From Muribaculaceae bacterium (GTDB taxonomy: Bacteria; Bacteroidota; Bacteroidia; Bacteroidales; Muribaculaceae), in contig JAIDXM010000022.1 in NCBI GenBank assembly GCA_029058745.1, positions 1 to 64,000 on the forward strand: 64,000 nucleotides of DNA. Reading direction: 5' to 3'. The notes under the pieces were generated by a model, which worked only from the letters and a program-made list of their open reading frames with translations, did not search any database and was not told the origin of the DNA. Numbering within the stretch: position 1 is the stretch's first letter; each line of letters opens with the position of its first letter. Below, in pieces: positions 46 to 10,145 of the stretch. Both the position numbers and the translations under genes were made by a program.

Positions 46-1545
46 ATGAACCCGCAATTGCAACAACAAGTGCAGTCAGACCCGCAATTGCAACAGCAGA
101 TGCAGATGAACCCGCAATTGCAACAGCAAGCGCAGCCAGACCCGCAGATGCAGATGCCAACCCAACAGCAAATGTGGCAACAGCAGATGATGCAACAGCA
201 GATGCCGGGTTATCCTCCACAAATGCCCACAGGCAACAGGAGCATGTTCGGCAACAGCCAACAGCAGATGCAACAGCAAGCTCCGGCATGCCCCAACCTC
301 ATTCCCGACAATCCCTTCAGGGTGATTGATTACAAGCCAATGCGGCTTTTCTCTGACAGCGACCACAATTTCTCGCTCACGGAAGCCAATGCAGTGGCTA
401 ACTTCGTTTCACAAAAACAAGGAGACAGAGCCAAGAACCTTTATCTGTGTTTCGATATTGGCGGAAGCACCACCGACATATCCGCTCTATACAAACTCGA
501 CTCCGGATTGACAATGATTAAGCAGAACTCAATCCGTTTTGCGGCACAGAGAGTATCGGAGGCAACAAGGCATGTGGTAGGATTTGAGAAAGTACTCATG
601 CAGATATGCGAGAAATTCAATATCACAATCCTCGGTCTGAACCAAGGCGACCGTAGATTCTCATCAGAGACGGCGCCCTACTACTTCAACCAGATTGTTG
701 ACAAACTTGATGACAATCAATTGCCCGACTTCTACAAGATAATCGCAGCAGAATGCCCGCAACTTATGTGGATTAACATGTATGTCACAGGGCTTCTTCT
801 CTTCTATGCCGGACAGATTGCCAGCAAGCTTGTGGACGACATCGCCCATACGAACTGGAGCGAACTCGCCCCAATCAACAACACCTCTCCGAAAGTGACA
901 GTTGTTTTCGCAGGTAAAGGCTCGCGTCTTCTCCAATGGCTAACGACTACAAAAGGAGATGCCGGGAAGGACTACTACAACCAGCTGTTTGAGGAAGGGT
1001 ATGTTGGAGAGCGTCAGATATTCCCCCCTATTGAAAGTCTTGAGATTGAATATCCCACAATCGACAATTCTCAGGATATAAAATATGAGGTATCGAAAGG
1101 TTTGGCAAAAAGCGCCACACAATTGTGCAATCCGGCAGATGACACCCCAAGCGAGATTATCGGTGAGTCTGGATTCTCCGTAAGGTCGCTCGACGGCAAT
1201 ATATATCCAGTGGAATATGTGAATTCCATTACCCCGGAGATGATGGAATGGATTGGAAACCTCTTCAATCCGGACGATTCCGCACCTTGTGGCAAGTTCT
1301 TCCAGTTCTGCAACATATTCTATGGCGCGGCGCAACAGTTCTTCGACATGAAAGTGTCGCAGGAGGTGTTTATGGAAGGATTCAGGAAGATGAATATCGT
1401 GCAATACGTGCAGAACCTTCCCGAATTTGTGGAGGCTAAACGCGACAAGAACAAGAAAAACGGAAAGTTTGATTTCGTCGCCCCGATCATCATTCTGGAG
1501 GGGATGAAATTCTACGACGACTATCTGCTGAAATCTTTAAGATGA
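46..1545 (+). CDS. actin/Hsp70-fold ATPase-like protein, N-terminal half missing in this frame
   Basis: The first ~90 residues are Gln/Met/Pro-rich and built from imperfect NPQLQQQ repeats. The rest looks like the second half of an actin/Hsp70 fold. DIGGSTTDIS (about residues 138-147) matches the phosphate-2 motif, VVFAGKGSRL the adenosine-binding motif, and YEVSKGLA the segment after it. No phosphate-1 motif is present, so subdomain I is absent from this ORF. The frame stays open upstream to a TAA at 4-6 without a start codon, and another frame runs open into a 7-T run at 24-30. The gene may therefore be the 3' part of a longer gene broken or shifted at that run. Its end overlaps the next gene by ATGA. 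The role is unknown; context suggests an ATP-dependent component of the GTPase cassette. The start at 46 is simply the first ATG. Confidence 0.7.
   Translation: MNPQLQQQVQSDPQLQQQMQMNPQLQQQAQPDPQMQMPTQQQMWQQQMMQQQMPGYPPQMPTGNRSMFGNSQQQMQQQAPACPNLIPDNPFRVIDYKPMRLFSDSDHNFSLTEANAVANFVSQKQGDRAKNLYLCFDIGGSTTDISALYKLDSGLTMIKQNSIRFAAQRVSEATRHVVGFEKVLMQICEKFNITILGLNQGDRRFSSETAPYYFNQIVDKLDDNQLPDFYKIIAAECPQLMWINMYVTGLLLFYAGQIASKLVDDIAHTNWSELAPINNTSPKVTVVFAGKGSRLLQWLTTTKGDAGKDYYNQLFEEGYVGERQIFPPIESLEIEYPTIDNSQDIKYEVSKGLAKSATQLCNPADDTPSEIIGESGFSVRSLDGNIYPVEYVNSITPEMMEWIGNLFNPDDSAPCGKFFQFCNIFYGAAQQFFDMKVSQEVFMEGFRKMNIVQYVQNLPEFVEAKRDKNKKNGKFDFVAPIIILEGMKFYDDYLLKSLR
49..145 (+). repeat. short tandem repeat coding for NPQLQQQ units
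   Basis: The block CCCGCAATTGCAACA occurs three times near 51, 90 and 111, with related CAG/CAA-rich sequence between the copies. It encodes the Gln/Pro/Met-rich N-terminus of the first ORF. Such repeats slip easily and may vary in length between strains. Confidence 0.75.
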
Positions 1546-2954
1546 GCATACCATTTATCATAATCAACCTGTCGGGGAAATTCATTTCCCTGGAATATTT
1601 ACGCGAGGGGGGGACTGCTGTCCCCTCCCCTTTCCCTCGCGGGAACTGGCCGATGCCGCTGTCGCAGTTTTCCAGACGGCTACTCACCGGCTATGACTCC
1701 AATTTCGTGTTCGACATCACGAAAAGAATCGGGGAGCTTCTTGAGGACTCTTTCACCGAAGCCGGTGAACTCGAATCCCTGAAAGGTTCTCTCCCTATTC
1801 TCTTCATGATTGAAAACGACGTGACGGACAATGATGCCGACTCGATAAAAGAGAATTTCAACAAATTGGGGTTCGCGAATGTCAGCACCCTTCGCCGCGA
1901 CATGGCCATCGCCGATTACTATGCCCGCGACTACAGACCCGAGGGGGTGGTCACGGCAAGCTCCGACGGCAAAGACCTTTTCATATCCCTTTCTCTCCAC
2001 TCTCAGTCGGGAGCCGTGGCGCGAAAGACATTACCTGGTGAAGCCTGCGACCCGAGGGCAGAAGACCTCGCCAACAAAATATGGGAACAGGTGCGCGACT
2101 ATACCATCGACCTCCACCGGGAGAATGAGACAGCGGCTCTCACCAAAGCGGCTCTTGATTATCTGAAAAGCGGAAAATCGGAATTGGAAGGGTGCGTGAG
2201 GCTTTCAGATGGCGCGGAATATGACTATTTCGTCAACCGCTCGATGGTAAACAACGAAGGGACAAGACAGCTCCAGACAAAAATCACGGAGTTCCTGACA
2301 GAGTTCGGGCTCGCTGACAGGAGCCGCAGTGTAATAGTGCTTTGCGGAGAAGCCATCTCCAGCAACTACATCCGGCAGTCGCTGACCCCGGGATTCGGAG
2401 AGGTGGCCACTCTCGACGGACATCTGCGCGACGCAATCTTGCGTCTCGCCACAAATCTCTCCTCCTTTGCATGGAAAGAAACTGCATTAGACAAACCCGT
2501 CGCCCCTCCGGAAAAACCATCTCCCCGTAAGCCGGAATACACGCAACCGAAGCCTTACACCCGGCAACCGGCGGAACCGGAGGAAGAACCGGAGACTACT
2601 GACTCCGAGGGTCTGATGCCTATTGAACTGGAGGCTTCCGTAGAGTCGGTCAAGGCCGGGTTCATGAAGAGGAAGAAGGTTCTGAAAATAAGGGTGACAT
2701 CGCCAATGGGAGGAAAGATTCCTTGGCACAGTGTGCTGTGTGTGCAGGAAAAACCGCTATCGACTATCGACATGCAGAATGTGGTGCAGGACTACGACCG
2801 TGGCGACAGGCTACCTTTCAGCCTCGAACTCGACTTGCCCCTGAAACAGTGTCCCGACGCGAAACGGCTCAGGATTTATTTCAAACCTCATCCCGACGAA
2901 CCGGTGGGCATCAACAATGCATACGAGGTGGCTCCACTCACTGTCAACCTATGA
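1542..2954 (+). CDS. degenerate actin/Hsp70-like protein with C-terminal beta domain
   Basis: I recognise no named family. The 470-residue protein starts with IIINLSGKFISLEYL, at the place where an Hsp70 phosphate-1 strand would be. It later has GVVTASSDGKDLFISLSL, a phosphate-2-like strand without the DxGGGT signature, and VIVLCGEAISSNYIRQSL, which resembles the adenosine motif region. This suggests a pseudo-enzyme partner of the upstream actin-fold protein. A Pro/Glu-rich linker (about residues 325-355) leads to a probable beta-sandwich C-domain of about 110 residues. The start overlaps the upstream stop by ATGA, which implies translational coupling. An in-frame GC-rich nested palindrome lies near the 5' end. 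The fold is inferred from motif spacing only. Confidence 0.6.
   Translation: MSIPFIIINLSGKFISLEYLREGGTAVPSPFPRGNWPMPLSQFSRRLLTGYDSNFVFDITKRIGELLEDSFTEAGELESLKGSLPILFMIENDVTDNDADSIKENFNKLGFANVSTLRRDMAIADYYARDYRPEGVVTASSDGKDLFISLSLHSQSGAVARKTLPGEACDPRAEDLANKIWEQVRDYTIDLHRENETAALTKAALDYLKSGKSELEGCVRLSDGAEYDYFVNRSMVNNEGTRQLQTKITEFLTEFGLADRSRSVIVLCGEAISSNYIRQSLTPGFGEVATLDGHLRDAILRLATNLSSFAWKETALDKPVAPPEKPSPRKPEYTQPKPYTRQPAEPEEEPETTDSEGLMPIELEASVESVKAGFMKRKKVLKIRVTSPMGGKIPWHSVLCVQEKPLSTIDMQNVVQDYDRGDRLPFSLELDLPLKQCPDAKRLRIYFKPHPDEPVGINNAYEVAPLTVNL
1602..1641. repeat. nested GC-rich palindrome inside the second ORF
   Basis: CGCGAGGG (1602-1609) pairs with CCCTCGCG (1634-1641), and inside it GGGGAC (1610-1615) pairs with GTCCCC (1620-1625). 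A run of seven G lies at 1607-1613. The element codes in frame for an EGGTAVPSPFPRG segment and looks unlike its surroundings. Confidence 0.6.
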
Positions 2955-2965
2955 TAAATACATTC

Positions 2966-2997
2966 GCAAATCGGAGAATACATTATCTCTGATTTGC
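2966..2997. repeat. intergenic hairpin between ORF 2 and the GTPase gene
   Basis: GCAAATC/GATTTGC plus an inner GAGA/TCTC stem closes an 8-nt loop, with one mismatch between the two stems. No T-run follows, so it may be an mRNA processing or attenuation structure rather than a terminator. A REP-like palindrome lies immediately downstream. Confidence 0.55.
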
Positions 2998-3003
2998 AAC
3001 CAA

Positions 3004-3020
3004 ACATGCCGGAGGCATGT
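3004..3020 (-). repeat. REP-like palindrome ACATGCC-GGA-GGCATGT
   Basis: A perfect 7-bp stem with a 3-nt loop. On the - strand it is preceded by GTGGGG, close to the GTAGGG that precedes the copies near 40250 and 40370. A half-site, ACATGCC, follows at about 3034. Confidence 0.65.
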
Positions 3021-3071
3021 CCCCACAACCGAGACATGCCTCCATTCTAAAAACAGTTAAAACCTAACATC

Positions 3072-4331
3072 ATGGCTTCAAAAAAAATACTTTGCCCCTA
3101 CTGCTTCGAGGAGTTTGAGAACACTCAGGCCTGGTATCAGTGTGAGAGCGAGGAACGCGACAATGACGGGGACTTCCGTTGCAAACGCGTCACGAGCGAC
3201 GAGTATGACAAATATTGGAAAGGGAAAGACCTCCTGATGCGTAATGTCTGGCAACAGAAGAGCGGATTCTTCGCACGCCTTTCGGGGCCTAAACTCAATG
3301 CCCAGAAATGCCCGCAATGCGGCTATAACTCACGTCGTTTCGTGTGTCCACACTGTTTCAACTGGCTTCCAACCGAAATGATTGAGAACGGTGCGGAGAT
3401 TATCTCTGTAATAGGTAGTCCTTCGAGCGGAAAGACAAATTATATTGTCGCACTTATCCATCAGCTGCGCAAATACGGCTACAAGATGAACCTGCAAGTA
3501 ATTCCAACGCAGCTTTATCGCGATGGTCATAAGGAAGAGTCAACCCAGAACCTTTTCAAAAGAATGGAGTCGCAACTTTTCACAGAAAAAACAGTCCTAC
3601 AGAAAACATCAAAGAAAACAAATGATATTCCGTGGATTTTTCATCTCTCTCAGCCAACTACAGGGAAGAGTATTTATCTCGTATTTTACGACACAGCCGG
3701 TGAAAAATTTACGGATGATATAAAAAATAACACGAAATATCTGAAGGAGTCATCAGCTGTCATATTGATTCTCGACACCTTGTCAATTAACTATATCAAA
3801 GAAATACTTACTAAAAAGGGGCTCCAAGACCTTGGAGGAGCAAGTGCAGACTACAAAGAAATACAAACGGCTCTCAACATGTTCAGAGGCCAATCGGGCG
3901 TTAAAATTGAAAACAAACCGTTTGCTTTTGTATTCAGTAAATTCGATGCCGTCATAGATCATAAGAATGATCTTGATTTTGCTGCCGATGAGTTTGTTAT
4001 CGGTGACAAGAAATCAGATAGCAGCTATATCAAGACAGGGATTCTAAACCTGTCGAAAATCGATTCAATTAGCGAATCTATTGAAGAAGCCCTCTTTGAA
4101 CAATGGGATATGGGAGCTTTGGCAAGTTATGCAAACAACTGGAGCGCGAAGCGTGGCATGCGCGACCCCAATAACCCTGCCAATAAATACAAGTTCTTCG
4201 GTGTCTCCGCCTTCGGCACTATGCCCGATGAGAACGGAGAGCTTGAGAAAGTGGAGCCTTATCGAGTGATGGACCCTCTTGTATGGATTCTCCATAAACT
4301 CGGTCAATTTGATATTCCAACTAAAAAATAA
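3072..4331 (+). CDS. zinc-ribbon P-loop GTPase (double-GTPase system, DO-GTPase2-like)
   Basis: Two zinc-binding clusters open the protein: C8, C11, C24, C37 and then C80, C83, C92, C95 (CPQCGYNSRRFVCPHC). A P-loop GSPSSGKT follows at residues 115-122, a Walker B/G3 motif VFYDTAGE, a G4-like FVFSKFD, and a G5-like GVSAFG. This is the layout of a TRAFAC-type GTPase with an N-terminal zinc module. No transmembrane segment is visible, so it is probably cytoplasmic. It ends 8 bp before the GAP1-like gene, and a second GTPase follows two genes on. The pairing of two GTPases around a GAP1-like protein matches the double-GTPase conflict systems known from comparative genomics. GTP hydrolysis is inferred from the motifs; the biological role is unproven. 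Confidence 0.8.
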   Translation: MASKKILCPYCFEEFENTQAWYQCESEERDNDGDFRCKRVTSDEYDKYWKGKDLLMRNVWQQKSGFFARLSGPKLNAQKCPQCGYNSRRFVCPHCFNWLPTEMIENGAEIISVIGSPSSGKTNYIVALIHQLRKYGYKMNLQVIPTQLYRDGHKEESTQNLFKRMESQLFTEKTVLQKTSKKTNDIPWIFHLSQPTTGKSIYLVFYDTAGEKFTDDIKNNTKYLKESSAVILILDTLSINYIKEILTKKGLQDLGGASADYKEIQTALNMFRGQSGVKIENKPFAFVFSKFDAVIDHKNDLDFAADEFVIGDKKSDSSYIKTGILNLSKIDSISESIEEALFEQWDMGALASYANNWSAKRGMRDPNNPANKYKFFGVSAFGTMPDENGELEKVEPYRVMDPLVWILHKLGQFDIPTKK

Positions 4332-4339
4332 CCTACGCC

Positions 4340-6811
4340 ATGAGATACGCCCACGTAATTTACAACTCTTCTGAGAAGAGCCAGTCAGGAGCTGTCGGGT
4401 TCGGAGTGAGATGCACCACTGAAGGCACTCCCGTAGAACTGACAGAAGCCATGCAGGACAACGATATCTTCTCTTTCATTGAAGCAGGTCCTGCCCTGAC
4501 CCCGTCTGCACTTGCCGCCAATCCGGATGCAATCCGTCAGATTGTGCCGACATATTTCTTCAAGTCAATCCCTCTGCACGACAAAAGCCGCGCATTCGTG
4601 CTTGGCCGCAAGATTGCCGTGGGCTTCGACTACACTTTCTATCTCAACGGGAAACCGGGACGACTCGGCAACTACGTCGTGGATTCATACGTGTTCCCGC
4701 AACCTCCTACGGCCAGGGAATTCGAAATCCTGCTTGAGGACGCCGACTCCGGAAGCAACCACTTCATCCCGGTGTCACCCTCTCCCACTCCCGACAACCG
4801 TGAGATGATTGAGATTTCACTCGGCCACAAACCATATCTCCCAGTTGAGGAGAGACCTTTCACCTCTCGATCTATGGTTAGGGTGAGTCCGCAGGCTATC
4901 GAACTTCTCTTCTCATTCATACAAAGCAGGAAGGAGGGGAAACCTGTGCTCGTGAAAAGCGATGTCGCATCCCCGCCACGACTTATGGCCGAACTCGCCA
5001 AGCTTGTCCCGGAGAAACAGATTGAGAATCTGACGTTCCTGACAAACCACACGGATGAGGGGAAAAAACAGGGTATCAACATCATTTTCATCAACGAGTT
5101 TTATTCTTTCGAAGTCTTTAAAAAGCAATGGATATGGCTCGACCTTGAAAACGGGGACCGTTGCGAGAGTCCGGAGGCAACCCTGTTCCGCGATAAGGTG
5201 GCGGCATATGTGGCATCCGGGAACTTCGACGCGATACACAAACTCGTGGGGTGGTGCATGTCTGACATGTATGAGAAAGGGAAGGCCTTCCCGACTGAGA
5301 CACAGACACAGCTCTACAACTACATTTACAACTACGATGAATTCCGTCTCCCTCTCATGGCTTCCGACGCGAATCTTCGCAACACCCTCAACGATTATTT
5401 CAAGAGCAATCCGGAAGAGAAACGGAAGTTTGACAAATCGATGCAGGACTGGTTCGGAAATATAGCCGACATCAACGGACTATGGAAATGGATTGACTTT
5501 ATCCTCGCCGTAGGTCCCGTAGATTGTTCTCTCGCAATCAACACCAACCGCCCGGTTATCACCAACGAGATTTTCAAGTCGGCTGATAGCTTCAGCAATT
5601 TCCACAACCGTTTCAAGCCACGTTTCCGCGAGGTGCTGAAGTTTGTTGACAGCAACGCATTCAAGGAGCACGACTCCTTCCTTTCCGAGATGCCGAACGA
5701 CTGGGAAGCCCTCTATCCGCTTTTCTTTTCGGAAAGAGTAGCCGACCACAGGATGCTCGTGGAAAGGATGATTGCCGACAACATCGAGCCTTCGATGAGA
5801 AGCCGCATCGTTGCCAAGGAAATCAGGCCCCCGGAAGCATACATCAACACCCTGGTGGAGATTCTGAAGAATCAACCGGTCAGAAATGAATGGAAAGTGA
5901 CAAAAATTCTGGCTGAGGAACTCTCCAACCAGAACAGGGTGATTCCTGACTTCTTCATGCTTTTCCCCGGGAAAATAGAAGATGGAATCTATAACAGACT
6001 GTTCCACTGGCAACTACAGAATTTCTATCCCAAAGGTGCGGCCGATGCCAGAAAGCTTGCTGACTACCTCATCAGGTTCCAGCGCAACGACATGGCAATG
6101 ACCCTTAACGGCTCCAATGTATTCACCCGCCTCTACTCGGCCATAAAGGAAGCCGTGAAGCGCAAGGAGATGACACGCGACGATGCCGTAAGGATATGCC
6201 GCGCCATGTTCCAGTCTTCTTACGATGCGGCAACCACCAGTCCGTTCCGCCTTCTCGACAAAGTGCTGTGTCACGCCGACATTCACGGGGAGAACAGAGT
6301 GGAACAGATATGGGAAATCTCAAAAGAATTGGGCGACAGGCAGTATCTCGCCACTCTCATTCCTGCCTTCCTGGCAAGCAAAGAGGCGAGCGCTCCCAAG
6401 GAACTCGCAAAAATATGCGATTTCATACTCAAAAATTCCTTGATGTCGAGGGAAGCGCTCACCTCCCTCGCCAAGACCTCCCGAATGGGCAACGAATACT
6501 ATGTCGGGATTCTCCTGCATGACAACCTCAAGCCGCAGGAAGAGCTGGAATTTCTTGTCAACGATGCCGGGATGACCGACGAACAGGCCCTCAACTTCCT
6601 TGAACGCTATTTCCCGGACAGCCACAAGAAGATTCTGAAAAGCCGAAAACCATCGGTGTTCCAGAAAATGTCTGGAATGTTCAAAGGGATGTTCGGAAAG
6701 AAAACTGACACTCCTGAAGAAGACGACGAGGAAACGGATGACACGACAAACGATACCTCCTCTGCCAACGGCAGAAAAGGGAAGGATAATAACCGAAATA
6801 AAAAACACTGA
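4340..6811 (+). CDS. GAP1-like GTPase-associated protein
   Basis: The N-terminus reads HVIYNSS...SGAVGFGV and later RLGNYVVDSYVFPQPP. This corresponds to the Y-[TN]-S...GFG and RxGNxxxHxxV-type pattern of the GAP1 N-terminal domain (type 2) that accompanies double-GTPases. The long remainder (about residues 200-770) looks mainly alpha-helical and is probably the middle and C-terminal GAP1 regions. The last ~45 residues are acidic, then basic, and low complexity. No signal peptide or membrane segment is seen. Spacing is 8 bp from the upstream GTPase gene and 2 bp to the downstream GTPase gene, so all are co-transcribed. A scaffold or effector-coupling role for the two GTPases is inferred from family context. 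Confidence 0.7.
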   Translation: MRYAHVIYNSSEKSQSGAVGFGVRCTTEGTPVELTEAMQDNDIFSFIEAGPALTPSALAANPDAIRQIVPTYFFKSIPLHDKSRAFVLGRKIAVGFDYTFYLNGKPGRLGNYVVDSYVFPQPPTAREFEILLEDADSGSNHFIPVSPSPTPDNREMIEISLGHKPYLPVEERPFTSRSMVRVSPQAIELLFSFIQSRKEGKPVLVKSDVASPPRLMAELAKLVPEKQIENLTFLTNHTDEGKKQGINIIFINEFYSFEVFKKQWIWLDLENGDRCESPEATLFRDKVAAYVASGNFDAIHKLVGWCMSDMYEKGKAFPTETQTQLYNYIYNYDEFRLPLMASDANLRNTLNDYFKSNPEEKRKFDKSMQDWFGNIADINGLWKWIDFILAVGPVDCSLAINTNRPVITNEIFKSADSFSNFHNRFKPRFREVLKFVDSNAFKEHDSFLSEMPNDWEALYPLFFSERVADHRMLVERMIADNIEPSMRSRIVAKEIRPPEAYINTLVEILKNQPVRNEWKVTKILAEELSNQNRVIPDFFMLFPGKIEDGIYNRLFHWQLQNFYPKGAADARKLADYLIRFQRNDMAMTLNGSNVFTRLYSAIKEAVKRKEMTRDDAVRICRAMFQSSYDAATTSPFRLLDKVLCHADIHGENRVEQIWEISKELGDRQYLATLIPAFLASKEASAPKELAKICDFILKNSLMSREALTSLAKTSRMGNEYYVGILLHDNLKPQEELEFLVNDAGMTDEQALNFLERYFPDSHKKILKSRKPSVFQKMSGMFKGMFGKKTDTPEEDDEETDDTTNDTSSANGRKGKDNNRNKKH

Positions 6812-6813
6812 CC

Positions 6814-8850
6814 ATGAAACGACTTCTGAACATTCTGATGCTGTTTCTCCTGGCGCTATCATTCTCGCCGGGAATTTCAGCCGCCGAATTCGGTGAACAT
6901 CCGGAAAGGTGCAGCCAACGATATGTGGTGACTCCCGGAAAGAAACTTAACGTGCGCACAAAACCCTCCACAAAAGGGAAGCTCATCTATCAGCTCCGTC
7001 CGGGAGACGTGGTGTATATCGACTCCTTGCGTGTCACCACAGCCGGAGGGTATGACTGGATATCAATCAACGACAGATGGGGCCAGGGATTCCCGCAGAC
7101 AGGCTACGTGACAAACCTCAACCGTTTCACTGCGGAGCCGAACCCTCTCTATGACCCTCCCACTGAGGAACAGATGAAAATCGAGGATGCCGTGGAGAGT
7201 TCGCAAGCCGTGGCCAAATGGATTATGCTTGCGCTCACAATCATATTCGCCATATGGTTCATATGGGCTTATTTCGCCAACGAAGGGAAGGAAAAGCTTA
7301 TCGGCTACAGGCTGTATGGAATGAGAAAGACATTCTTCTTCAACTCGCAACCCTACAAGTCGGTAATCTACATCACCCTGTTCCTCATGGCCGCCATCGC
7401 GGCATCGGTGGTGGCGCTTATGGCCATCGGCGGAGTGGTGTTCCTCTTTCTATGGATTGTCAAGATTCTGTGCTACGCGGTGGTATGGATTGGCATAATA
7501 CTCTGCATAGCATGCGCCATCGCCACTGTGTGCGGGGCTTTCGTGGCAGTCGTGGGTGTCCTTATAGGAGGCGCCATATGGTATTACGATGATAAAATCG
7601 AGAGTTTCGCGGAAGCATGCGCCGACACAGGGCTCAGGTTTTTCAACGAGTTCAACATCTTCGGATTCACCGTTGACCTATCAATACAGTATTGGCAGCC
7701 GGCTCTCATTGCGGTGGCCACTCCTATCGCCCTTTTCCTCGCACTTGCCGTGATATGGCTCCTCGCCGCAGGAGCGTTGATTCTGTTTGAGAAAATAATG
7801 ACCAAACGCTACAGCATCAAGCATCCGTGTCCCCACTGCCAGCAACCGTCGGAACCTGCCACCTACATGTCGAAGGGAGCCAACGGATATGAATATATCC
7901 CCAACGACATTCAGTTGCGTCCCGGAATGTATGGACTATTCCATATCACGCACCCCGTCACAGGAGAGAGGATGCCCACGATGATTCTCAACGGACGCGA
8001 CAAGATGCCGCGTGAATGTGCCAACTGCGGCAAGCGCATCCAGGCCGACGAGGGCACGGAACTGCATGTGGCAATGGTCGGAACAGCACAGTCTGGCAAG
8101 AGCACTCTCACCTACAGGATGATTGCCGAGATTTTCTCTCGCGCAGGGGCCGACAAGGTGGATTTCACTGACGCACGCAACACCATCAGAGATCGTGAGA
8201 TGGAAAAGAAAATCAAGTCAATCAGTAGTAAAGGATACATTTCCGATGATGATATGCCGGCGAAAACCGCAGTACAGGACACTGCCTCAACGCAGCTCAT
8301 CATCAAGAGAAACCACCTCCCGGTGCCTTACAGACTTTTCATCAACGATGTGGGCGGAGAGCTTTTCGACCCTGAACACAAGTCGCAGAAATCGGACGCG
8401 ACACGGTTTTTCCGCAACGTCGATTCCATTCTCATGATGATCGACCCTGTGACAACCGACCTCTCTGACTGCGACCCTTCCGACGATTTCAAGGAATGGG
8501 TGGAGAAATTCGACAAGGACGTGGCCGTGAAGCTACGTGTGAAAGACATCCAGGACACAATCGACAACCAGATTGACCAGCACGGCAACAAGCACAAGAG
8601 AATACATCTCAATATCGTGTTGCCGAAGAAGGACCTCGGATATATCCCGGACCACATCAGACATGACTCGCAGGAAGACCTGAAGAGATATATGACTGAG
8701 GAGATGGGACTCGGCGACCTGCTGAATTGGAGCAACAGGTTCGCATCAGTGTCATTCCACGCCATTGGGGCAATCTCAAAAGGTAAGGAGGCAAATATCA
8801 CCCCTCTTATCGATCATGTAATCGTGGGTCAGCTTGGCATAAAAATCTGA
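6814..8850 (+). CDS. membrane protein: SH3 sensor - TM segments - zinc ribbon - GTPase
   Basis: A signal sequence (residues 1-24) is followed by a bacterial SH3 domain (about 36-103, with LNVRTKPSTKGKLIYQL). Hydrophobic segments lie at about 134-153, 182-255 (several helices) and 294-328. A zinc ribbon CPHCQQP...CANCGKR (339-406) leads into a P-loop GTAQSGKS at 423-430. A G3-like FINDVGGE and ILMMIDP follow. The expected topology places SH3 outside the membrane and zinc ribbon plus GTPase in the cytoplasm, so an envelope signal could be passed to the nucleotide switch. It is the last gene of the cassette and is followed by a strong hairpin. The GTPase is DO-GTPase1-like. The ligand and partner are unknown. 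Confidence 0.78.
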   Translation: MKRLLNILMLFLLALSFSPGISAAEFGEHPERCSQRYVVTPGKKLNVRTKPSTKGKLIYQLRPGDVVYIDSLRVTTAGGYDWISINDRWGQGFPQTGYVTNLNRFTAEPNPLYDPPTEEQMKIEDAVESSQAVAKWIMLALTIIFAIWFIWAYFANEGKEKLIGYRLYGMRKTFFFNSQPYKSVIYITLFLMAAIAASVVALMAIGGVVFLFLWIVKILCYAVVWIGIILCIACAIATVCGAFVAVVGVLIGGAIWYYDDKIESFAEACADTGLRFFNEFNIFGFTVDLSIQYWQPALIAVATPIALFLALAVIWLLAAGALILFEKIMTKRYSIKHPCPHCQQPSEPATYMSKGANGYEYIPNDIQLRPGMYGLFHITHPVTGERMPTMILNGRDKMPRECANCGKRIQADEGTELHVAMVGTAQSGKSTLTYRMIAEIFSRAGADKVDFTDARNTIRDREMEKKIKSISSKGYISDDDMPAKTAVQDTASTQLIIKRNHLPVPYRLFINDVGGELFDPEHKSQKSDATRFFRNVDSILMMIDPVTTDLSDCDPSDDFKEWVEKFDKDVAVKLRVKDIQDTIDNQIDQHGNKHKRIHLNIVLPKKDLGYIPDHIRHDSQEDLKRYMTEEMGLGDLLNWSNRFASVSFHAIGAISKGKEANITPLIDHVIVGQLGIKI

Positions 8851-8886: not shown

Positions 8887-8921
8887 GGGGTCATATCATA
8901 ACCGGGTTATGATATGACCCC
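8887..8921 (+). terminator. terminator of the GTPase cassette
   Basis: GGGGTCATATCATAACC (8887-8903) is fully complementary to 8905-8921, giving a very long GC-closed hairpin. A pyrimidine-rich tail follows (GCTCCTTTCTCCCCCTCCC). It sits 37 bp after the last cassette stop. Confidence 0.8.
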
Positions 8922-8998: not shown

Positions 8999-10027
8999 AT
9001 GGCAGTAAACACCATATTCACCCGTTACCTCAAGGAGCTGAAGGTGCCACACACGGCATACTATTCCGATTCAATGTTCCACGGCATGACTTTCAAGTCG
9101 CTCTACGGTCTTTCGCATCTGCTGAAAACCTACGGGATAGATAACGAAGGAATGAGGTTGTCTGATAAAGACGAACTTACCAAGATGCCGGTTCCGTTTC
9201 TCGCGCAGACCAAAGACGGCATTTTCGTGATTGTAAAAGAAATCGCCCCCTCTAACAGCTCTGTAACCTACGACTCTCTGGGAGAAACTGAGACAATAGA
9301 CCTGGAGAGCTTCAAGAAAGGATGGAACGGGATAGCCCTTGTGGCCTTCCCTGATGAATCATCGCGTGAGCCTGACTATGCATCCCATCATCTCACCGAG
9401 ATTGTGTCGCGCATGTCGGGTTATCTGCTCGCGCTCTCCGCAATCGCTGTGTTCATCTACTTCTTTATCACCCGCCACGTATATTCCCACCTCTCCACAG
9501 TGCTGATAACGCTTCTCGACGGTGGCGGACTATATCTCTCATACCTTCTCCTCCAGAAATCTCTCAATATCCACACAGCCGCCTCCGACCGCGTGTGCGG
9601 TGTGCTGGAGAAAGGGGGATGCGACACGGTGATGTCGCTGAAAGTGTCGAAACTGTTCGGTGTCTTTTCCTGGAGCGAGGTAGGGTTCGGATATTTCAGT
9701 GTGTCGATGGCCACCCTCCTGCTGTTTCCGCATCTGTGGGGTTCACTCGCCCTCTGCAACCTATGCTGTCTCCCCTACACGTTCTGGAGCATATGGTACC
9801 AGAAATTCCGTGCCCGACACTGGTGCACACTGTGTGTAGGCGTACAGTCAACCCTCTGGCTACTCTTCTTCTGTTATCTTGCGGGAGGATGGTTTCACGC
9901 GGCGTTCCCGATTCATCCCGACATATGCATCCTCATCGCCGTATATGTGCTGTCGGTGCTCTTCTTAAATATGATTCTCCGAATATTCAAAAATCTCCCC
10001 ACCCATGAAAAAAATAACCATGCCTGA
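8999..10027 (+). CDS. VKOR-family membrane protein with inactive C39-like N-terminal domain
   Basis: Residues 5-118 resemble a C39 bacteriocin-type peptidase domain (YLKELKVPHT, SLYGLSHLLKTYGI). The catalytic Cys is absent, and the position of the family GHF motif reads DGIFVIV, so it should be non-catalytic and perhaps peptide-binding. Residues 140-335 form a VKOR-type helical bundle with C200/C208 and the redox motif WCTLC (C276, C279). VKOR proteins re-oxidise disulfide-forming partners in the envelope. C39-like/VKOR fusions occur in Bacteroidota next to Gly-Gly peptides. A small ORF with a Gly-Gly leader-like sequence overlaps the 3' end here. The start ATG at 8999 begins the C39-like domain directly, and no Shine-Dalgarno sequence is evident. 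Confidence 0.82.
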   Translation: MAVNTIFTRYLKELKVPHTAYYSDSMFHGMTFKSLYGLSHLLKTYGIDNEGMRLSDKDELTKMPVPFLAQTKDGIFVIVKEIAPSNSSVTYDSLGETETIDLESFKKGWNGIALVAFPDESSREPDYASHHLTEIVSRMSGYLLALSAIAVFIYFFITRHVYSHLSTVLITLLDGGGLYLSYLLLQKSLNIHTAASDRVCGVLEKGGCDTVMSLKVSKLFGVFSWSEVGFGYFSVSMATLLLFPHLWGSLALCNLCCLPYTFWSIWYQKFRARHWCTLCVGVQSTLWLLFFCYLAGGWFHAAFPIHPDICILIAVYVLSVLFLNMILRIFKNLPTHEKNNHA

Positions 10028-10145
10028 ACTTAAAAGCGCGACTATACTGAAAGCCGCCGAAATGAATATGATCCACTTCGGCGGCAACCATTCCCCTCTC
10101 ACTCCAGACCGTCTGAAAGCCATCGCGACTTCCGGGAAGTCCTGA
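10005..10145 (+). CDS. putative Gly-Gly leader peptide precursor (46 aa)
   Basis: This ORF is too short for the ORF track. It starts with MKKITMPELKSATILKAAEM, contains EMNMIHFGG, and after the GG leaves a 19-residue tail NHSPLTPDRLKAIATSGKS. The leader recalls the GG-Bacteroidales natural-product precursor type (EMxxIxGG), but has one extra residue between Glu and GG. The tail has no Cys. It overlaps the VKOR-family gene by 23 bp in another frame, which suggests coupled translation; an alternative start lies at 10020. No export ABC transporter or radical SAM enzyme is in the window. A role as a modified or secreted peptide is inference from leader and neighbour. Confidence 0.5.
   Translation: MKKITMPELKSATILKAAEMNMIHFGGNHSPLTPDRLKAIATSGKS

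What the first reader, a model, noticed from the sequence alone, without database searches (positions are those of the whole stretch)
8999..10145. Unannotated Gly-Gly peptide overlapping a C39-like/VKOR gene
A 46-residue ORF absent from the track overlaps the VKOR-family gene and carries EMNMIHFGG. The C39-like domain has lost catalysis and could bind the leader, while VKOR could set disulfides in a partner. The core has no Cys, so the peptide may instead be modified or act as a signal.
Basis: partly seen in the sequence, partly recalled or inferred. Interest (0 to 1): 0.62.

Follow-up and report, generated by a model that had tools for sequence, protein, structure and literature searches.

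The report
Pseudo-leader peptide paired with C39-VKOR oxidase
A tiny unannotated gene in a gut bacterium is a real, conserved partner of a membrane thiol-oxidizing enzyme: it looks like the targeting half of a bacteriocin precursor that lost its cutting site and its payload, apparently to become a permanent docking part of the enzyme.

Summary
The 46-residue ORF (10005-10145) is a real gene. A profile built without it finds it at E=7e-17 among all window reading frames. I found 87 distinct homologues, under purifying selection. In 247 sampled genomes of the family, 108 of 113 with a short C39-like/VKOR gene also carry the peptide. The order beyond this family gave no match. The conserved unit is Trx (WCxHC), C39-VKOR, peptide. 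The window's genome keeps the Trx at a distant locus.

The Gly-Gly reading fails. All 87 peptides have the C39 leader recognition knobs (hydrophobic at -12, -7 and -4). Position -2, which should be Gly for cleavage, is bulky (98% hydrophobic, mostly Phe), and none has GG in register. The window's GG is one residue late and occurs in 5 of 87.

The C39-like domain has lost its protease residues, while VKOR keeps its four Cys. AlphaFold2 of a read-through fusion docks the leader-like segment (pLDDT 94-97). Deleting the C39-like domain drops it to 72-79.

Best explanation: a core-less pseudo-leader retained as a subunit or adaptor of a probably cytoplasm-facing thiol oxidase, derived from long C39-VKOR-Trx proteins, several of which lie beside GG, Cys-rich peptides. 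Docking is supported by prediction; function is inferred. New variant of a known kind.

The parts
8999..10027 (+). C39-like/VKOR membrane protein, 342 aa (short form, no fused thioredoxin)
   Evidence: Pfam VKOR 7e-11 and Peptidase_C39 8.5e-8; PDB profile match to PCAT1; Foldseek of a close orthologue's model to PCAT1, ComA and HlyB C39(-like) domains and to Synechococcus VKOR
8999..9358 (+). C39-like domain, protease-dead (no conserved Cys or catalytic His)
   Evidence: Alignment A2: 19 of 32 orthologues have no Cys at all here and no Cys column is conserved
9503..9874 (+). VKOR domain; four invariant Cys: C200 and C208 (loop), C276 and C279 (CxxC)
   Evidence: Invariant columns of A2; also invariant in the long C39-VKOR-Trx proteins
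10005..10145 (+). small gene for the 46-aa pseudo-leader peptide, overlapping the C39-VKOR gene by 23 nt
   Evidence: Profile match E=7e-17 without the window row; 87 distinct homologues; purifying selection
10029..10079 (+). leader-like docking segment L9-F25 (LKSATILKAAEMNMIHF): knobs L15 (-12), M20 (-7), I23 (-4), bulky F25 at -2
   Evidence: Column statistics over 87 peptides; AF2 docking of this segment in orthologue L053
10080..10085 (+). the reported GG (G26-G27); one residue out of register, present in 5 of 87 peptides, not a conserved feature
10086..10118 (+). second conserved segment NHSPLTPDRLK (family consensus KHTVLTPExL)
   Evidence: H, T, L, T, P majority columns
8887..8921 (+). 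perfect 16-bp hairpin followed by a T-rich tail: terminator-like site that separates the upstream GTPase genes from this unit

Best explanation
The small gene makes a core-less, uncleavable pseudo-leader. Its helix docks in the leader groove of the protease-dead C39-like domain of the C39-VKOR membrane protein and stays there as a small subunit or adaptor. With a stand-alone WCxHC thioredoxin it forms a three-part thiol oxidase (Trx passes electrons to VKOR, VKOR to quinone). The oxidase evolved from the long C39-VKOR-Trx proteins, several of which lie beside GG-leader, Cys-rich peptides. Charge distribution, an even number of membrane helices, and the lack of signal peptides on Trx and peptide suggest that all active parts face the cytoplasm. 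Shown: gene reality, linkage, selection, leader code without cleavage site, loss of protease residues, kept VKOR Cys. Predicted: docking on the C39-like domain. Inferred: topology, permanence of binding, adaptor role, and direction of evolution. Most likely role: the peptide keeps the Trx or client next to the VKOR active site, replacing the covalent C-terminal Trx of the long form.
For: Peptide found next to short C39-VKOR in 108 of 113 genomes of the family sample (my count from the lists; order outside the family: none). Trx gene just upstream in nearly all loci, motif WCPHC 68, WCGHC 5, WCSHC 4, WCQHC 1, no signal peptide. The four relatives without peptide (L170-L173) also lack the Trx gene. 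Leader code complete, -2 blocked. AF2: linker pLDDT 44-48, then peptide segment 361-380 at 94-97 with a beta bridge; with the C39-like domain removed the same segment is 72-79 and the bridge is gone. Peptide and C39-VKOR distances correlate, r=0.63, 0 of 2000 permutations. K+R per sequence: 5.3 and 2.8 in the loops on the C39/CxxC side against 0.2, 0.1 and 1.0 on the other side. Long forms carry a C-terminal Trx, and nine of 29 such loci have a GG-type small ORF with 2-6 Cys.
Against: No experiment. AF2 was run on an artificial read-through fusion and no coordinates were available, so the docking site rests on the deletion control; 72-79 without the C39-like domain is lower but not disordered. 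In the window's own genome the Trx is unlinked (L168), and in one genome Trx and a divergent peptide lie together without VKOR (L175). 28 of 87 peptides lack the HTxLTP segment, so an effector role for it is not general. Correlated distances may only reflect shared descent.
Confidence: 0.5

Rival explanations
1. The peptide is a RiPP or bacteriocin-like precursor: the C39-like domain recruits it, it is modified, cut and exported by machinery encoded elsewhere.
For: Leader recognition code is intact. Long-form relatives do sit beside GG, Cys-rich peptides, and in bacteroidetocin loci a thiol oxidoreductase gene is needed for full toxin activity (PMC6671954).
Against: No GG in register in 87 of 87, hydrophobic -2 in 98%. 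64 of 87 have no Cys and 22 have a single one. No conserved transporter or protease gene nearby. One copy per genome, conserved through the family, unlike bacteriocins.
Confidence: 0.12
2. The peptide is an inhibitor or plug: it occupies the C39-like groove and keeps the oxidase off until a real leader-bearing substrate or a signal displaces it.
For: Same docking and conservation evidence as the best explanation; translational coupling by overlap in about half of the loci (49 of 86) would keep it stoichiometric.
Against: No candidate displacing substrate was found next to the short form. The second conserved segment (KHTVLTPExL) is not needed for a simple plug.
Confidence: 0.2
3. The peptide works in trans as a leader or chaperone that brings other substrates encoded elsewhere to the oxidase.
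For: Leader without core plus a second conserved segment is what an adaptor for free substrates would look like.
Against: No partner identified; not distinguishable here from the subunit model.
Confidence: 0.13
4. The ORF is a chance reading frame or a by-product of the overlapping VKOR coding region.
For: It is short and overlaps the VKOR gene by 23 nt.
Against: Variable spacing and frame, an inverted copy, pN/pS 0.34 outside the overlap, profile E=7e-17.
Confidence: 0.02

Closest known systems
Bacteroidetocin loci (class IIf bacteriocins; PMC6671954)
   Same: Bacteroidales; a small peptide gene, often unannotated, beside a thiol oxidoreductase; leader recognised by a C39 domain
   Different: Bacteroidetocins have a cleaved GG leader, at least two Cys, a peptidase-containing ABC transporter and a TM protein; here no GG in register, no conserved Cys, no conserved transporter, and the C39 domain is inactive and sits on the VKOR. 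Whether the bacteroidetocin oxidoreductase is a C39-VKOR-Trx protein was not checked
C39 leader recognition by LahT/PCAT transporters (PMC6363468; PDB 6mpz, 6v9z)
   Same: Hydrophobic knobs at -12, -7 and -4, acidic -8; same C39 fold
   Different: Bulky -2 blocks cleavage; domain lacks catalytic Cys and His; no ABC transporter
C39-like domain of HlyB (type I secretion; PDB 3zua)
   Same: Protease-dead C39 domain used for substrate binding
   Different: Attached to VKOR, not to an ABC exporter; partner is a 36-76-aa peptide
Bacterial VKOR-Trx fusions (Synechococcus VKOR, PDB 3kp9, 4nv5)
   Same: VKOR fold with two Cys pairs, Trx partner
   Different: Extra N-terminal helix and C39-like domain, Trx as a separate gene without signal peptide, probably opposite membrane orientation (the Synechococcus orientation is from my own knowledge)
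Long C39-VKOR-Trx proteins of Bacteroidota (L002, L067-L079)
   Same: Same C39-like and VKOR domains, about 28-35% identity
   Different: Trx fused; several lie next to GG, Cys-rich peptides instead of the pseudo-leader

Membership tests
Double-glycine leader precursor (RiPP / class II bacteriocin) | GG (or GA/AG) at -2/-1 in register with the knobs | tested here: not met
   0 of 87 GG in register; -2 is F, C, L, I, M or W in nearly all
Double-glycine leader precursor (RiPP / class II bacteriocin) | Hydrophobic knobs at -12, -7, -4 and acidic -8 | tested here: met
   100%, 100% and 100% hydrophobic; E/D 84%, Q 14% at -8 (the anchor itself required -12 and -7, but no peptide failed it)
Double-glycine leader precursor (RiPP / class II bacteriocin) | Core peptide with modifiable residues (for disulfides: 2 or more Cys) | tested here: not met
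   64 with none, 22 with one, 1 with two Cys
Double-glycine leader precursor (RiPP / class II bacteriocin) | Linked active C39 protease / ABC exporter | tested here: not met
   No conserved neighbour other than Trx within 9 kb; C39-like domain without conserved Cys
Peptidase C39 (PF03412) | Catalytic Cys and His | tested here: not met
   only the C-terminal part of the Pfam model aligns
C39-like domain (leader or substrate binding) | C39 fold without catalysis, binds a substrate peptide | tested here: inconclusive
   Fold met; binding predicted only
VKOR (PF07884) | Two redox Cys pairs and quinone-binding membrane helices | tested here: met
   Pfam 7e-11; C200, C208, C276, C279 invariant; Foldseek to VKOR structures; quinone binding itself not tested
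VKOR (PF07884) | Thiol oxidase activity and membrane orientation | not testable with these tools
   Only the positive-inside statistic is available
Bacteroidetocin system | Four-gene set: TM protein, GG peptide, thiol oxidoreductase, PCAT | tested here: not met
   Conserved set here is Trx, C39-VKOR, peptide

The most novel reading that the evidence does not exclude
A bacteriocin-type leader peptide was stripped of cleavage site and core and domesticated as a permanent subunit of a cytoplasm-facing quinone-linked disulfide-forming system (Trx, VKOR), a Muribaculaceae-specific thiol oxidation pathway on the inner face of the membrane.
Probability: 0.35. Interest if true: 0.78.

Novelty: new variant of a known kind. 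Interest (0 to 1): 0.6.

Why it matters
It defines an unnamed small-protein family carried by 112 of 247 sampled genomes of one family of gut bacteria. It pairs a recognisable leader code with a binding-only C39 domain, so leader recognition can be studied separately from cleavage. If the orientation is right, these anaerobes have a dedicated machine that makes disulfides (or senses thiols) on the cytoplasmic side. It also shows how a precursor peptide may turn into a structural protein.

Tried and rejected
GG peptide reading: rejected by register and lack of conservation. Shared operon with the upstream GTPase genes or the downstream glycoside hydrolases: none of these window proteins has a match in the other loci and a hairpin terminator lies between GTPase and C39-VKOR. 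Known family: no Pfam or NCBIfam match for any of 31 peptides beyond chance. RNA element: no Rfam match. A first multiple alignment with free peptides misplaced them, so in-frame read-through fusions were used instead. A first regular expression for GG peptides was wrong and was corrected. A first dN/dS script timed out and a second crashed; both were replaced. Literature searches for C39 with VKOR found nothing. The idea that the HTxLTP segment goes with Trx is only suggestive: two loci without Trx (L126, L169) also lack the segment, but others lacking it have Trx.

Full report
What was checked. The ORF at 10005-10145 (+) is as described: 46 codons, ATG start, first 23 nt overlapping the end of the C39-like/VKOR gene 8999-10027. 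The genus is probably Duncaniella (Muribaculaceae): related records in the same genus carry that name, including the Duncaniella muris type strain.

It is a gene. Of 61 relatives, 24 (including the window's own genome) have a C39-VKOR match, nearly all of them in the same genus. A small ORF of the same pattern follows almost every short-form orthologue. A profile built from 28 of them found the rest, including six that were not in it. Jackknifed, it still picks the window ORF at 7e-17. The start lies from -35 to +97 nt relative to the VKOR stop and in all three frames; in L033 the peptide gene is on the opposite strand. So it is not a shadow of the VKOR frame. Codons outside the overlap show pN/pS 0.34, with every one of 33 pairs below 1.

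It is one part of a three-gene unit. A thioredoxin-like gene of about 98 codons lies directly upstream of C39-VKOR in 36 of the 38 short-form loci of the first set and in nearly all of the second set. Its motif is WCxHC in 78 of 78, mostly WCPHC, and no signal peptide is seen. The window is an exception: its Trx homologue (60% identity) sits next to clp genes on another contig. No other neighbour is widely conserved; other shared flanking genes are found in small groups of loci only. In 247 genomes of the family, 112 match the peptide profile and 119 the C39-VKOR profile. Sorting the lists by hand, I count 113 genomes with the short C39-VKOR, of which 108 have the peptide. The five without are one with a truncated peptide-like ORF (L169) and four of a diverged subfamily that also lacks the Trx gene (L170-L173). 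Of four genomes with a peptide match but no short C39-VKOR, two are weak matches, one has Trx and peptide side by side (L175), and one has a peptide next to a partial Trx match (L174). A scan of 393 genomes of the order found the peptide only in this family.

It is not a Gly-Gly peptide. In the LahT leader complex the residues at -12, -7 and -4 fill hydrophobic pockets and -2/-1 are the glycines (PMC6363468). Lining up 87 distinct peptides on that code gives L/M at -12, M/L/F at -7 and a hydrophobic residue at -4 in all, and E, D or Q at -8 in 85. But -2 is hydrophobic in 98% (F in 53, C in 12, L in 11), and GG never falls at -2/-1. The anchor used to line them up required the residues at -12 and -7, so those two are only a test in the sense that no peptide failed; -4, -8 and -2 are independent. 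The window's GG is at -1/+1 and is shared by 5 of 87, the window among them; three of the four peptides with the nearest C39-VKOR relatives also have it. In contrast, eight peptides beside long C39-VKOR-Trx proteins have the same knobs with GG or AG in place and mostly 4-6 Cys in the core. Nine of 29 long-form loci carry such an ORF, against 4 of 36 short-form loci in twice as much DNA.

The enzyme. The C39-like domain has no conserved Cys or catalytic His, and its nearest solved folds are PCAT1, ComA and the HlyB C39-like domain. The VKOR part keeps four invariant Cys (C200, C208, C276, C279). The model of L053 shows six membrane helices, so the N-terminal domain, both Cys pairs and the C-terminus fall on one side. 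Loops on that side are rich in Lys and Arg, those on the other side are not. By the positive-inside rule this side is the cytoplasm, the reverse of what I know of Synechococcus VKOR. This is an inference.

Docking. In L053 the peptide is in frame with the VKOR gene after one stop codon and a short spacer, so a read-through translation gives a single-chain model. With 35 rows (14 of them fused), the linker has pLDDT 44-48, while peptide residues 361-380 reach 94-97, with a beta bridge at 371-372 and a helix at 375-379. Removing residues 1-121 (the C39-like domain) with the matching alignment drops the same segment to 72-79 and removes the bridge.

Mechanism. I commit to a pseudo-leader that serves as a permanently bound subunit or adaptor (0.5). 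The long form carries its Trx covalently; the short form has Trx as a free protein plus this peptide, and relatives without Trx lack the peptide. A tether that keeps Trx (or a client) at the VKOR is therefore the simplest role. An inhibitor or plug (0.2), an in-trans adaptor for unknown clients (0.13) and an exported precursor (0.12) remain.

Known or new. The domains are known: Bevans et al. noted extra N-terminal domains on Bacteroidetes VKORs (PMC4555120), and bacteroidetocin loci have a thiol oxidoreductase needed for full activity (PMC6671954). No Pfam or NCBIfam model matches the peptide, and ten literature searches found no description of the unit, though only open-licence papers were searched. 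I file it as a new variant of a known kind: it uses the leader-C39 recognition code, but it is not a double-glycine precursor and not a bacteroidetocin system.

Noticed in passing
window 46-8850: Run of genes with double-GTPase domains (DO-GTPase1/2) and a GTPase-associated GAP1-M protein upstream of the unit; not found around the other C39-VKOR loci.
   Followed up: partly
L002 / L180 (G000:C36): The window's genome has a second, long C39-VKOR-Trx protein (512 aa) near a contig end; no GG peptide was found within the stretch held.
   Followed up: partly
L170, L171, L172, L173: A diverged short C39-VKOR subfamily (YPSK/YPRH in place of the MPFKSLFG motif) with neither Trx nor peptide beside it.
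   Followed up: partly
L175:4044-4541: Trx and a divergent pseudo-leader lie side by side with the C39-VKOR gene missing between them, in a 99% complete genome.
   Followed up: no
L184:5850, L185:3399, L068:7600, L069:4569 and 7237, L073:7640, L080:7371: Unannotated-looking GG or AG leader peptides with 4-6 Cys next to long C39-VKOR-Trx genes: candidate disulfide-bonded bacteriocins.
   Followed up: partly
L168:3478-3771: The window genome's detached Trx (WCPHC, 97 aa) beside clpS/clpA-like genes, showing that the unit can split.
   Followed up: yes
L033:9401-9568: Pseudo-leader gene inverted relative to C39-VKOR, tail to tail and overlapping it, yet the peptide sequence is well kept.
   Followed up: yes
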